DNA from: Pseudozyma flocculosa PF-1
Taxonomy: Eukaryota > Basidiomycota > Ustilaginomycetes > Ustilaginales > Ustilaginaceae
Direction: 5' to 3'
Assembly (NCBI RefSeq): GCF_000417875.1
Contig: NW_006920875.1
Location: 40,538 to 104,537 of the forward strand
DNA: 64,000 nucleotides
The notes beneath the pieces are model-generated. The model made no database searches and was not told the origin of the DNA. It saw only the letters and a list, made by a program, of their open reading frames with translations. Both the position numbers and the translations under genes were made by a program. The first letter of the stretch is position 1, and each line of letters starts with the position of its first letter. Shown piece by piece: positions 56,230-62,493 of the stretch.

Positions 56230-56366
56230 GATGGGCGGGCGCCGCGGGGCCAGAGGACGCCCGCCCAGCTGGTCCCTCTGCGCTGGCGCNNNNNNNNNNN
56301 NNNNNNNNNGATGGGCGGGCGCCGCGGGGCAGAGGAGCCCGCCCAGCTGTCCCTCTGCGCTGGCGC
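56230..56366. other. 20-N assembly gap flanked by the same sequence on both sides
   Basis: Positions 56290-56309 are N. The 60 bp before the gap (56230-56289) and the 57 bp after it (56310-56366) are the same except for three single-base length differences (extra C, extra C/G, extra G in the left copy). This is the pattern of an unmerged contig overlap with read errors, so the gap is probably not a real gap. Confidence 0.85.
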
Positions 56367-57255: not shown

Positions 57256-60200
57256 ATGACGAGGCTCGCCGCTCGACAGGCTGCAAGCCATGCTCGCGCC
57301 GCACTGCGCACACCTCGAGCCGGCGTCGAGGCCATCCCAACGTCCGGCCGCCGCATCACCACCACCCGCGGCCGTCCTATCGCCTCTACGTCGAGTGCCC
57401 TTCTTTCGCGATCAGCACCTTTGAGAGCCTGCTCCTCGGTCCGCTCTTATGCCACCGCCTCGCCCGGCCAACCTCGCCACGCCGCGGTGACATCCCCGCT
57501 CCTCGACTCGACTGTCGTTGACGCCGACATCGTCATCGTCGGTGGTGGCGTCGTCGGCCTCGCCCTTGCCTGCGGCCTGGCCAGCACTGCGGGTGCTTCG
57601 CCGTCAGCCTCGACGACCTCCCGCGTAGCCTCGCCGAGCATCGCGCTGGTCGAGGCTTCCGACCTCGCCAGGTCGCGCGCCTGGGCGAGCGACAAGCAGC
57701 AGCGTTACCAGGACCCCTCGTCGCACTCGGACAACATTGACTGGGAGAACCGCGTCATCTCGCTCACCTCCGAAAACATGCAGTGGCTCAGAGGTGAGTG
57801 CTCTCGTGCACGCGTGGGCTCACTGCTTGGCTTGTCGCCACTTCTGACGCCTCCGTGTTTCCCCCCCGCTCGCAGACATCGGCGTCCACCGCTACCTTGT
57901 CCAACATCGCCTGCGACCCATCGAGTCCATGCGGGTCTGGGACGGCCTGTCCGGCGCCACTCTGGACTTCGACTCGGCCGAGCTCCGTGACGTCATGACT
58001 GGACCTGCCGGCTCGTCTGGCTCGTCTCAGATCAGCGTCATGGTCGAGATCTCCAATCTCCAGCAGGCCTTTCTGCGCTACCTCGAAGAGGGCGCTGGCC
58101 GCGGCCACGTCGCGATCCGCGATAAGAGCAAGGTCCAGAGGATCGTCCCGGGTCTCGAAGCACTCGACCCTGCTGCCGACGCGCCGCACTTGAACGCTGC
58201 CGAAGCCGACCGGGACCCCTGGCCGGTGCTGGAGCTGTCGTCGGGCAGTACCTCTGCACAGCCCGCGTTGCTTCGGGCGCGTCTCCTCATTGGCGCCGAT
58301 GGGCCAAACTCGCCGGTCCGGATGTACGCCGGCATCGGCAGCTACGGCTGGCCCTATGACCGCAAGGGGCTCGTCGGGACCCTTCGCTGCGCAGGACCGC
58401 AGGTCGGCGAGCCGCCTGTCGGCAAGACGGCGTGGCAGCGCTTCTTGCCAAGCGGCACGGTGGCCTTCCTTCCGCTGAGCGAACAGACCGGGTCGATGGT
58501 CTGGGCTCTAGAGCCCGCAGTGGCCGAGGCACTGACGACGCTTCACCGCGAGACGGCCGGCAGTCCCGTCGAGCCGCTGGCGAGGCTGGTCGACGCTGCC
58601 TTCCGGCTGCCCTGGTCGCACCTCGAGAGGCTGTTCGCCAGCATCGTCTCGTTTGCCCGCCAGCCTGCGGCAGAGGGGCGCGAGCGTGACTGGTCCTGGG
58701 TCCTCGACATGCTGCCGTCCGAGTTCGAGTTCAGCGAGCGTGGCGGCGCCCCGTTGCCGGAGTCGTCGACGGGCGACGTGCCGCCCAAGGTCGAGTCCGT
58801 CGACGTCAAGAGCGTCGCCTCTTTTCCTCTTCAGCTCAAGCACGCCGACGCCTACCTCGGCTCTTCGCTCAATGGCTCGCCCCTCAGCATCTCGGGCCTG
58901 CTGGCCGGCGCGCTGTCGGTCGTTGGGTTCGCCGCCGAGGGCGCCGGCCAGGGCGGTGGCCGGGCGAGGACCGCGTTGGTCGGCGACGCTGCGCACACCA
59001 TCCACCCTCTGGCGGGCCAGGGCCTCAACCTGGGTATAGCCGACGTGCGATGCCTGACCGAGGTTCTCAACGAGGCGCAGGCGGCCGGCGCCGATCTCGG
59101 CTCGTTCAACGCGCTCAAGAACTACCCGCGCCGGCGGTACTGGGAGAACCAGAAGATGCTGTCGGCCGTCGACCATCTCCACTGGCTGTTTGCCGGCATT
59201 CCGGTGCCCCTGGCCCAGCAGGCCGACGGCGGACAAAGGCAGATGCAGCAGGATGGCCTGCTCCGCGGCTTGGCCAAGGAGGGCATCGCCAGGGGCACGA
59301 TCTGGGCACGCAGTACCGGCCTCGAGGTGATCAACGAGCTGGGCTTTGCCAAGAACGCATTCATGCGTCAGGCTGGCTCGACGACGGGAACGGCCAGGAG
59401 GTCCGGGCCGTCGTCGGGAGCATTCGGCGCCGGCAGCCGCGGCCTTACGACGCTCGCCGCAAGGTCACCCCGATCGAAGGCAGCGTTGCCCCTGTCCACC
59501 ATCTCGTCGATGCAGATGCAGATGCGCCACCACTCGAGCCACAGCACGGGTCCTCTGGCATCTGATGCCTATACGAAGGGCACCGGTGCAGGTCTTGCCA
59601 CGACGGGAACTCCCTCGCTGGCCTCGCTGACGCCGGAGCAGCGTCGCGCGCTCGACGACATGCTTCGCGTCGACCACTCGGGCGAGGTGGCGGCAAACAC
59701 CATCTACGAAGGGCAGGCGGACGTCTTCGGCGCGCTGGGCGACGTCAAGAACCGCGACATGGCGAGAGAGATGTGGTTGACGGAGAAGAAGCACCTCGAG
59801 GTGATGCGGGTGCTGCTGCGGCAGCACAACGTGAGGCCTTCCGCTCTGCTGCCGCTGTGGGCGGTGGCTGGCCGCGTGCTGGGCGGAGTCACTGCCCTGC
59901 TGGGCCCGCGCAGCGCCATGGCGTGCACTGAGGCGGTCGAGACGGTCATCGGAGAGCACTACGACGATCAGCTCGCCGCGCTCTCGTCGATCCTGAAGCA
60001 AGAGGTCGCCGCCGGCGCAGTCACATCAGCGCAGGTTGCCGAGGCCACGACGGCAGACGGCGCACCATCAACGGCAGCGGCGACAGCTGCGGCTTCAGCT
60101 TCGGCTCCAGCCTCGGAGGCCCGAAACGAGGTGCACCCGTCACTGCCGCTGCTCTCGGAAATCATCAAGGAGTTCCGCGACGACGAACTCGAGCACCTCG

Positions 60201-60307
60201 ACACGGCCGTCGAGCACGAGAGCCAGCAGGCGGCGGGCCACGCGCTGCTCAGCGCCGTCGTGGCCGCCGGCTGCAAGGGCGCCATTTGGGTGGCCGCCAA
60301 GGCCTAG
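57256..60307 (+). CDS. Fusion of Coq6 (flavin hydroxylase) and Coq7 (di-iron hydroxylase) of ubiquinone synthesis
   Basis: Exons 57256..57793 and 57876..60307; 989 aa. An Arg/Ser/Thr-rich presequence (1-70) precedes Coq6: FAD loop DADIVIVGGGVVGLALACG (89-107), LLIGADGPNSPVR (about 317-329) and GDAAHTIHPLAGQGLNLG (549-566), ending near 680. A linker (about 680-762) is Arg/Ser-rich without acidic residues around 698-738 (LTTLAARSPRSKAALPL, MRHHSSHSTG), like a second presequence. Coq7 follows (about 763-989) with di-iron ligands in DHSGEVAAN (Glu783), TEKKH (Glu816/His819), AVETVIGEHY (Glu868) and DDELEHLD (Glu950/His953). Coq6 hydroxylates ring C5, Coq7 C6, both in the matrix-side CoQ synthome. 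No stop or splice signal separates the halves. Coq7 also carries an Ala-rich insertion (about 890-930). Confidence 0.93.
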
Positions 60308-60740: not shown

Positions 60741-62493
60741 ATGGCGTCGCACCAGCTCGCACGCGGCGCGCGGCACCTCGTCCAGCAGGCCGTCGCATCC
60801 TCCAGCAGCATCGCCGCCGGCGCCAGCGCCAGCACCAGTACGGGCACCAGCTCCGCCTTTGCGTTCGCCTCGGCGGTGCCGCACTCGTCCCTGCGATGCT
60901 TTAGCGCCTCCGCGGCACAGTCGGCGGCAAAGGCCAAGGCCGTGACGCCAAAGAAGAAGTCGACTGTCAAGAAAAAGACCCATACCGGTCCCAGAGGCAT
61001 GGGTGGACCCAAGAGGAAGGGCGGTCTCGATGTGAGTGTCCGATGTCGGCGCTGGCATTGGCGCGGCGGGAAGGCGAGAGCAGTCAGAGGAGCGGATAGG
61101 CTGATCATTTGCGGGTGCAACTCGAACGCTGCTCTGCCTCTTCACCCCGCTCAAACGCAGGCGGGACCCTCGGCGTCCAAGACGTCCGAGTTCCACCAGG
61201 ACGCTCCGGACATGTCTTCGCTGGGCGTGTTCAGCTCCGAGAGCATCACCAAGGCCGTCGTGGGCAAGCCGCTGGCGTGGAACGACAAGGCGCTGAGCGC
61301 GTTCAAGCACTTTGGGCTGCCGCGCGACCTGCAGAGGGAGCTGGCGGCGCAGCCGCGGCCGCGGACGCTGGTGCGCGAGCAGACGCTCAAGGTGCTCGAC
61401 CGGCTCGACGCGGCGGCCAAGAGCGGGCAGACGCATAAGCTCGTCCTCACCGGCTCGCCCGGGTGCGGCAAGTCGACGCTGCTGGCGCAGAGCGTGTCGT
61501 ATGCGCTCGACGAGGGGTGGGCCGTCGTCTACGTTCCGCAGGCCATCGACCTGATCAATTCGTCGACGACCTACTCGTACAGCCCCTCGCAGCTCGCCTA
61601 CCTCCAGCCCGAGGTGACGCGGAGCATGATCTCTGCCATGCTGCAGCTCAACCAGGCCATTTTCAAGCGCATCGCCACGGCCGAGGCCGTCGAGCTGGAG
61701 CGGTCCGCCACGCTCGAGGCGGGCACGACGCTGGACAAGGTGGCCCGCCAGGGCATCGACGAGAACCTCAACGCCGCCGCGCGCCAGCAGGTGCTTGACC
61801 TGATCCTCCAGACGCTCGCCCGCCAGACCGAGGTGCCGGTGCTGGTGGCCGTCGACGAGGTGCAGGCCCTCTTCCGCACCTCGCTCTACCGCGACCCGGA
61901 CTACGCGGCGCTCGAGTCGTACGAGCTGGGCGTGCCGCGCTCCCTCCTGGCTCTGCTCGAGGGCAAGGGCAGCTTTGCATCGCAGCGCCTCGTCTTTGTC
62001 GGAGCGCTCAGCAGCACCCAGACAGAGTACCCGACCCCGACAGAGCTGCAGGTGGCGCTCCAGGACAGGGCGGGCGGCCCCGACGCCATCCCGGCCCTCG
62101 GACGCGCGGCACACGCCTACGTCCGTCTGCAGCAGCGCCACCTCGCCAATGCCCACGCCGCCGCCCTCGAACCCGTCGACGTGTCCGACCCGCTCACGAC
62201 GTCCGAGGCCGCCGCCCTCTTTGCGCAGCTCAAGGGCGAACGCAAGCTCTGGTCGCGTGAGTCCCCTCTCCTTTTCCTTTGGTTCCTTGTCGTCTCCCTC
62301 CCTCCCTTGCCTCTGTGCACCAGACGGCATCCGGTATCTGACACGACCTCCCTCTTGCCTCTCGCCACCCCGCGTCTCTCTTTCTTTCCATAAACCTGCA
62401 GCGGCCAACGACGAGCTCTTTGTCGCCAAGTTTGTCGAGAGCGCGGGCAACCCGCGTCGCTTTAGCCGCAGCCTCACCTCGACCCTCTTGTGA
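60741..62493 (+). CDS. RSM23: Mitochondrial small-subunit ribosomal protein mS29 (DAP3 family GTPase-like)
   Basis: Exons 60741..61031, 61161..62256 and 62402..62493; 492 aa. The N-terminus is a Ser/Ala-rich presequence followed by a very basic stretch (KAVTPKKKSTVKKK). The DAP3 P-loop is LTGSPGCGKSTLL (about 194-206), after LVREQTLKVLDRL. Later come the VVYVPQAIDLINSSTTY strand, a VLVAVDEVQALFRTS Walker B-like segment and a C-terminal FVAKFVESAGNPRRFSRSL. Rsm23/DAP3 is a GTP-binding structural protein of the mitochondrial 37S subunit. Intron 1 (129 bp) is frame-neutral and could be read through by naive ORF calling. Confidence 0.92.

What the first reader, a model, noticed from the sequence alone, without database searches (positions are those of the whole stretch)
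57256..60307. COQ6 and COQ7 encoded as one 989-residue precursor with an internal presequence-like linker
One open frame (after one early 82-bp intron) contains all Coq6 flavin motifs and then all Coq7 di-iron ligands. These two enzymes catalyse different ring hydroxylations of the same pathway, normally from separate genes. The linker (about 698-738) is Arg/Ser-rich, lacks acidic residues and ends RHHSSHS, like a mitochondrial presequence; this suggests either import as a polyprotein cut by the processing peptidase, or a recent gene join that kept the old Coq7 targeting signal. A permanent fusion would fix a 1:1 ratio and could channel the quinone intermediate. I know of no described Coq6-Coq7 fusion, but could not search.
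Basis: partly seen in the sequence, partly recalled or inferred. Interest (0 to 1): 0.9.

Follow-up and report, generated by a model that had tools for sequence, protein, structure and literature searches.

The report
Smut Coq6–Coq7 joined precursor gene
In smut fungi and their yeast relatives, two enzymes that make coenzyme Q are encoded as one joined protein whose connecting stretch still looks like the second enzyme's old mitochondrial address label and cutting site, so the cell probably imports the pair as one chain and cuts it in two.

Summary
The window is Pseudozyma flocculosa PF-1 (PFL1_02464). It is no gene-model accident: 26 database proteins carry both domains; the 14 named rows (13 species, 8 genera) are all Ustilaginomycetes. 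Five are already named "COQ6 and COQ7". Tilletia, Malassezia, Exobasidium and Tilletiaria have separate proteins. Fused Coq7 domains form one clade (100/97).

The linker holds the old Coq7 presequence: stand-alone Tilletia Coq7 reads R-x-H-S...LASDAY, fused linkers typically R-x-H-S-S...LASDAYT. R-x-H-(S/A)-(S/T) occurs in 26 of 27 linkers; the published Icp55 motif in 20 of 27, against 0-1 in control stretches. Seventeen of 27 linkers have no Met, so separate translation of Coq7 is unlikely.

Best reading: import as one precursor, then internal cleavage by the processing peptidase, as for yeast Arg5,6. Cleavage is inferred, not shown; Violaceomyces lacks the site. Direct channelling is not supported: Coq5 acts between them.

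The parts
57256..57793 (+). exon 1 of the COQ6-COQ7 gene (presequence and start of the Coq6 domain)
   Evidence: spliced translation; identical to P0001
57794..57875 (+). 82-bp GT-AG intron
57876..60307 (+). exon 2: rest of Coq6, linker, whole of Coq7, stop codon
57256..57450 (+). N-terminal presequence, residues 1-65, with an R-x-Y-A-T site (RSYAT, 63-67) at its end
   Evidence: motif; disordered 12-81 in the AlphaFold2 model; cleavage inferred
57514..59380 (+). Coq6-type FAD monooxygenase, residues 87-681 (contains the intron)
59381..59533 (+). linker residues 682-732: basic, no acidic residue, mostly disordered (688-736); carries the former Coq7 presequence
59438..59452 (+). upstream R-x-L-T-T motif (RGLTT, 701-705), counterpart of the R-x-F/L/Y motifs in other fused proteins
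   Evidence: not an exact match to the published motif
59525..59539 (+). RHHSS, residues 730-734: conserved R-x-H-S-S site, predicted new N-terminus at S733
   Evidence: 26 of 27 fused proteins; cleavage inferred
59534..59647 (+). N-terminal tail of Coq7 (residues 733-770) with the GPLASDAYT block shared with stand-alone Tilletia Coq7
59648..60295 (+). Coq7 di-iron hydroxylase domain, residues 771-986; ligand positions E783, E816, H819, E868, E950, H953

Best explanation
The gene is a single-origin fusion of COQ6 and COQ7 shared by the Ustilaginomycetes sampled. It makes one precursor with two presequences: the usual one at the N-terminus and, between the enzymes, the retained presequence of the former stand-alone Coq7. 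The N-terminal signal takes the chain into the matrix. There the mitochondrial processing peptidase (MPP), trimmed by Icp55, cuts after the N-terminal signal and again at the conserved R-x-H|S-S site (H732/S733 here), and possibly at the upstream R-x-F/L/Y motif. This releases separate Coq6 and Coq7, made and imported in equal numbers, which join the CoQ-making complex as elsewhere. Shown by sequence: the single frame, the conservation, the homology of the linker to the Coq7 presequence, and the site-like constraint. Inferred: import order, cleavage, and the separate mature enzymes.
For: Single frame. 26 proteins with both domains. One Coq7 match, and no other strong Coq6 match, in the genome. 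Fused Coq7 one clade, 100/97, 14 chosen fused rows. Linker aligns with the N-termini of stand-alone Tilletia Coq7: R-x-H-S...LASDAY. R and H invariant in the 26 linkers that align there, with seven kinds of residue between them, although the stretch before is a median 27% identical to this linker (n=24). Published motif RX(F/Y/I/L)(S/A)(S/T) (PMC8847149 passages) in 20 of 27 linkers, shuffle mean 1.69 and maximum 6; in 14 of 18 N-terminal presequences; in 1 of 20, 0 of 26 and 0 of 27 control stretches. R/K 173 against D/E 13 in 1194 linker residues; 77/112 and 80/140 in two control inserts; 20 of the 26 linkers with a site have no acidic residue before it. Linker disordered like the presequence. 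No Met in 17 of 27 linkers. M16-type and aminopeptidase-P-type families, to which MPP and Icp55 belong, are in the genome.
Against: No proteomic, transcript or biochemical data. Violaceomyces palustris (P0023) has a 57-residue linker with no R-x-H site and 4 acidic residues; its gene model is truncated, so it may be wrong. His before the cut is not in the published Icp55 motif, and P. flocculosa itself has no exact match to that motif in its linker; no N-terminal presequence has the His form (0 of 18). Seven of 18 stand-alone relatives do not show R-x-(H/Y/F) at the place (by eye). Hydrophobic moment did not set linkers apart from their shuffles, nor true presequences from theirs. Related sequences are not independent, so shuffle counts overstate the evidence. 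The R-x-H block might be kept for another reason.
Confidence: 0.66

Rival explanations
1. Permanent bifunctional enzyme: the chain is not cut, and Coq6 and Coq7 stay tethered by a flexible linker of about 60 residues inside the CoQ complex, fixing a 1:1 ratio; the old presequence is a relic.
For: Both domains complete in one frame; linker disordered, as a tether would be; the Violaceomyces linker has no site but the fusion persists.
Against: A relic without function should drift, yet R and H are kept in 26 of 27 linkers while the stretch before is a median 27% identical; acidic residues stay rare.
Confidence: 0.27
2. Coq7 is also made on its own, from an internal promoter or start codon in the linker; the joined frame is partly a by-product.
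For: P. flocculosa has three Met codons just before the site (residues 725, 727, 729), and 10 of 27 linkers have at least one Met; two short unnamed database proteins start at the later Met of MLRVDHSGE (P0035, P0036).
Against: 17 of 27 linkers contain no Met before MLRVDHSGE, and a start there would cut into the first Coq7 helix (766-799 in the model). P0035 is contained in fused P0012, and P0036 matches the end of fused P0020 at 172 of 175 residues, so both look like partial gene calls.
Confidence: 0.05
3. Artefact: an assembly or gene-model error joins two neighbouring genes.
For: There is a 20-base N gap at 56290-56309, but it lies outside the gene.
Against: The same join appears in 26 proteins, 14 of them from 13 named species, with a conserved in-frame linker.
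Confidence: 0.01

Closest known systems
Arg5,6 tandem precursor of Saccharomyces cerevisiae
   Same: Two matrix enzymes of one pathway in one precursor; N-terminal presequence plus internal MPP site (PMC8847149 and PMC8835746, passages seen).
   Different: Arg5,6 cleavage by MPP has been shown by experiment, according to those reviews; here it is inferred. Other enzymes, other fungal class.
Etp1 and Rsm22-Cox11 of Schizosaccharomyces pombe, and Atp25
   Same: Composite mitochondrial precursors in which internal targeting-like sequences and MPP motifs were found in silico (PMC8847149 passages).
   Different: Unrelated protein pairs; here the internal signal can be traced to the stand-alone form of the second enzyme.
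Stand-alone fungal Coq6 and Coq7
   Same: Same domains, flavin motifs and metal-ligand positions; Tilletia Coq7 shares R-x-H-S and LASDAY.
   Different: Two proteins, each with its own N-terminus.
Database entries 'related to Ubiquinone biosynthesis protein COQ6 and COQ7' (Sporisorium, Ustilago trichophora, Melanopsichium)
   Same: Orthologues of this gene; five rows.
   Different: Only the names were seen; no analysis of origin or processing appeared in the searches made.

Membership tests
Coq6 (UbiH/UbiF/COQ6 flavoprotein monooxygenases) | three flavin-binding motifs | tested here: met
   residues 96-101, 319-326, 549-566; among P0001-P0026 the first motif is in 19 of 26, the 7 others being entries that start inside or after it
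Coq6 (UbiH/UbiF/COQ6 flavoprotein monooxygenases) | score over the curated subfamily cut-off (TIGR01988) | tested here: met
   271 against 224.65 bits
Coq6 (UbiH/UbiF/COQ6 flavoprotein monooxygenases) | score over the narrower equivalog cut-off (TIGR01989), an annotation threshold | tested here: inconclusive
   278.9 against 489.3 bits, not reached; but 6 of 6 stand-alone basidiomycete Coq6 controls miss it too (265-402 bits), so it does not discriminate here; in the quick tree the fused rows sit beside Tilletiaria Coq6 (SH-aLRT 84)
Coq6 (UbiH/UbiF/COQ6 flavoprotein monooxygenases) | ferredoxin-dependent ring hydroxylation | not testable with these tools
   needs an assay
Coq7 (di-iron hydroxylase) | six carboxylate and histidine ligands | tested here: met
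   E783, E816, H819, E868, E950, H953 by alignment to 7ssp (human numbering recalled); the four motif blocks are in 26 of 26 fused proteins P0001-P0026
Coq7 (di-iron hydroxylase) | score over the Pfam cut-off | tested here: met
   197.6 against 23.5 bits; the equivalog NF033656 is missed (49.4 against 180), as by 4 of 4 stand-alone basidiomycete Coq7 controls (62-68 bits)
MPP-processed mitochondrial tandem precursor (Arg5,6 kind) | two complete enzymes in one frame behind an N-terminal presequence | tested here: met
MPP-processed mitochondrial tandem precursor (Arg5,6 kind) | internal presequence-like stretch with an MPP/Icp55-type motif | tested here: met
   R.[FYILH][SA][ST] in 26 of 27 linkers, exact published motif in 20 of 27; in this protein only the form with His (RHHSS), which the published motif does not list
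MPP-processed mitochondrial tandem precursor (Arg5,6 kind) | cleavage into two mature enzymes | not testable with these tools
   needs N-terminal proteomics or immunoblot

The most novel reading that the evidence does not exclude
The chain is not cut: smuts use a permanently joined Coq6-Coq7 hydroxylase in which the Coq6 half docks Coq7 on the CoQ complex and takes over part of the work of Coq9, which three family searches did not find in this genome (their sensitivity in a fungal genome was not controlled). In yeast Coq9 is needed for full function of both Coq6 and Coq7 (PMC11495197, passages).
Probability: 0.06. Interest if true: 0.8.

Novelty: new member of a known kind. Interest (0 to 1): 0.55.

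Why it matters
It is a clean natural case of how a mitochondrial polyprotein arises: stand-alone relatives, a sister lineage in which the two genes may be linked, and a fused class in which the second enzyme's targeting signal has become an internal linker. It also fixes synthesis of two CoQ hydroxylases at 1:1, which can be used to study stoichiometry of the CoQ complex. It warns annotators that naming such a protein only 5-demethoxyubiquinone hydroxylase hides its Coq6 half.

Tried and rejected
Hydrophobic-moment scan for an amphipathic helix: linker percentile mean 0.55 (n=26), true presequences 0.57 (n=18); it does not discriminate, so it is not used. First Coq7 tree: my pattern dropped all 11 outgroup rows, and one short row of the fused kind (P0036) was labelled stand-alone; rebuilt with outgroups from a chosen subset of 14 fused, 13 stand-alone and 11 outgroup rows. 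The Coq6 tree used 13 fused, 15 stand-alone and 7 outgroup rows and the quick method. P0005 was left out and of alignment A1. P0155 (frame broken after the linker, no Pfam Coq7 match) is counted only in linker statistics. In one search the counts for the stretch after the site (17 R/K, 45 D/E in 767 residues) are incomplete, because my pattern ended early in P0006, P0018 and P0022; they are not used as evidence. Foldseek against PDB returned only flavoprotein matches, that is the Coq6 half, in the 50 rows shown (best 4k22, UbiI). The Tilletiaria contig could not be fetched with the tools on hand. Channelling from Coq6 to Coq7 was rejected on the reaction order in PMC7615680 (passages). Ten paper searches ran; no listed title or abstract start describes a Coq6-Coq7 fusion. 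The listings are capped (for example 20 of 48, 12 of 87), only open-licence papers are held, and of the papers I saw passages of seven only. None of those passages mentions it.

Full report
WHAT IS THERE. The frame is as described. Exon 1 (57256-57793), an 82-bp GT-AG intron (57794-57875) and exon 2 (57876-60307) give 989 residues and a stop. The product is identical to PFL1_02464 of Pseudozyma flocculosa PF-1 (P0001). The C-terminal part is Coq7 (Pfam COQ7, residues 771-986, E 1.5e-58) with all six metal-ligand positions (human numbering recalled). The N-terminal part belongs to the UbiH/UbiF/COQ6 flavoproteins (TIGR01988, 271 bits, over its cut-off) with the three flavin motifs. It misses the narrower COQ6 equivalog cut-off (278.9 against 489.3 bits), but so did all six stand-alone basidiomycete Coq6 proteins that I scanned, so the cut-off does not discriminate here. 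The whole genome held (23.0 Mb, 33 contigs) has one Coq7 match. Of its eight Coq6 matches, three are pieces of this gene; the five others score 21-38 bits.

HOW WIDE IT IS. A search with the Coq7 part among proteins of 544-1730 residues gave 34 hits; 26 (P0001-P0026) carry both COQ7 and FAD-binding domains. Fourteen of the 26 rows have species names, 13 species in 8 genera: Pseudozyma, Sporisorium, Ustilago, Kalmanozyma, Melanopsichium, Testicularia, Thecaphora and Violaceomyces. Each genus was looked up through one taxon and lies in Ustilaginomycetes: Ustilaginales for six, Urocystidales for Thecaphora, Violaceomycetales for Violaceomyces. Five rows are named 'related to Ubiquinone biosynthesis protein COQ6 and COQ7'. 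Twelve rows have no name. The other eight of the 34 hits are Coq7 next to unrelated or no named domains. The search scored only the 7993 candidates sharing most words, so fusions in distant groups are not excluded. Searching with Coq7 alone (best 120 of 1476 listed) gave stand-alone Coq7 in Tilletia, Ceraceosorus, Exobasidium, Tilletiaria, Malassezia, Meira, Jaminaea, Parajaminaea and Sympodiomycopsis, and in no named Ustilaginomycete. Seven of these nine genera were looked up and lie in Exobasidiomycetes or Malasseziomycetes; the other two are recalled. Two unnamed smut-like pieces (P0035, P0036) start at the Met of MLRVDHSGE; P0035 is contained in fused P0012, and P0036 matches the end of fused P0020 at 172 of 175 residues, so they look like partial gene calls. 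Stand-alone Coq6 occurs in the same outside groups (best 120 of 3587 listed).

ORIGIN. In a Coq7 tree of 38 chosen rows, the 14 fused rows form one clade (bootstrap/SH-aLRT 100/97), with Violaceomyces branching first (the program warns that its bootstrap had not settled). In a quick Coq6 tree of 35 rows, the 13 fused rows form one clade (SH-aLRT 89), next to Tilletiaria and two unnamed rows (84). Coq6 of that sister group stops 2-4 residues after the AGx where the linker begins. For Tilletiaria, the Coq6 and Coq7 entries show the same longest-contig length, 260,435 bases; of 11 species with both proteins listed, it is the only such case. This hints that the genes were linked before they fused; I could not read the contig.

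THE LINKER IS THE OLD COQ7 PRESEQUENCE. Three named stand-alone Tilletia Coq7 proteins begin with a basic presequence and then R-C-H-S-H, R-L-H-S-S or R-A-H-S-T, followed by (G/A)PLASDAY. Fused linkers typically show R-x-H-S-S followed by GPLASDAYT. By eye in the alignment, 11 of 18 stand-alone rows have R-x-(H/Y/F) at this place; seven do not (Ceraceosorus twice, Exobasidium, Meira, Jaminaea, Parajaminaea, Sympodiomycopsis). In the fused set R and H are invariant in the 26 rows that align there, the residue between them takes seven forms, and the two following Ser are kept in 26 and 25 of 27 rows. The stretch before is a median 27% identical to the P. flocculosa linker (range 16-38%, n=24).

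A CLEAVAGE-TYPE MOTIF UNDER CONSTRAINT. A review gives the Icp55 consensus after MPP cutting as RX(F/Y/I/L), then the cut, then (S/A)(S/T) (PMC8847149, passages). I tested it with controls in the same proteins. It is in 20 of 27 linkers (shuffle mean 1.69, maximum 6 in 1000), 14 of 18 N-terminal presequences, 1 of 20 Coq6 inserts, 0 of 26 Coq7 inserts, and 0 of 27 stretches after the site. With His allowed before the cut it is in 26 of 27 linkers; the His form itself is in none of the 18 presequences. P. flocculosa has only RHHSS and a near match, RGLTT. Linkers up to the site hold 173 R/K and 13 D/E in 1194 residues; the N-terminal part 198 and 54 in 1697; the Coq6 insert 77 and 112 in 1022; the Coq7 insert 80 and 140 in 580. 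Twenty of the 26 linkers with a site have no acidic residue before it. Shared descent makes these counts non-independent. Violaceomyces is the exception: a shorter linker, no site, four acidic residues, from a truncated gene model. A hydrophobic-moment scan told nothing, as it did not pick out true presequences either.

STRUCTURE. An AlphaFold2 model on a 78-row alignment (mean pLDDT 79.4, pTM 0.68) gives two well-folded parts. Segments under 50 are the presequence (12-81), the linker (688-736), the Coq7 insert (907-928) and two very short ones (1-3, 551-555, the latter inside a flavin motif). Foldseek's best PDB match is the C5-hydroxylase UbiI, 4k22.

MECHANISM. Seventeen of 27 linkers have no Met before MLRVDHSGE, so in those Coq7 cannot be started on its own with a targeting signal; it must come from the joined chain. 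The favoured account is one import event, then cutting by MPP and Icp55 at the linker site, as reported for yeast Arg5,6 (MPP) and suggested in silico for Etp1 and Rsm22-Cox11 (reviews PMC8835746 and PMC8847149, passages). Artificial polyproteins with MPP sites have been used in yeast (PMC10450427, passages). The genome holds M16-type and aminopeptidase-P-type families, to which MPP and Icp55 belong (subunits not identified). Cleavage itself is inferred. The main rival is a permanent tether.

CHANNELLING. In the reconstituted human pathway COQ6 starts the ring changes and, as shown there in vitro, also does the C1 hydroxylation; COQ5 methylates that product, and COQ7 acts after COQ5 (PMC7615680, passages). 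So the product of Coq6 is not the substrate of Coq7, and direct hand-over between the fused halves is not supported. The fusion would matter for stoichiometry and assembly instead.

LITERATURE AND VERDICT. Ten paper searches showed no title or abstract start describing this fusion; listings are capped and most subscription papers are not held. The fusion is real, old, and already visible in database names; the traced presequence and the constrained site are the part I found nowhere in those searches. I rate it a new member of the known kind of mitochondrial tandem precursors.

Noticed in passing
60742-62000 and beyond, + strand: The next gene downstream encodes DAP3/mS29, a mitochondrial ribosomal protein (Pfam DAP3, E 1.1e-57, on two exons that I joined by guess). 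Two nuclear genes for mitochondrial proteins lie head to tail.
   Followed up: partly
whole genome G000: Coq9, the partner of Coq7, was not found with PF08511 or TIGR02396, and PF21392 gave only a chance-level match (E 0.52), while Coq4 was found at 2.5e-41. Either Coq9 is too diverged or split by introns for this search, or it is missing.
   Followed up: partly
P0155 (unnamed ncbi protein): A fused relative whose reading changes just after the linker, so that Coq7 is no longer recognised; sequencing error, gene-model error or decay cannot be told apart.
   Followed up: no
56230-56329: A 20-base N gap (56290-56309) with two exact copies of a 20-base GC-rich word, at 56230 and directly behind the gap at 56310; perhaps an unresolved repeat in the assembly.
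   Followed up: partly
P0027-P0034: Coq7 in long proteins next to unrelated or no named domains in single species (Marasmius, Phenoliferia, Nowakowskiella, Hanseniaspora and others); they look like gene-model joins but were not checked.
   Followed up: no
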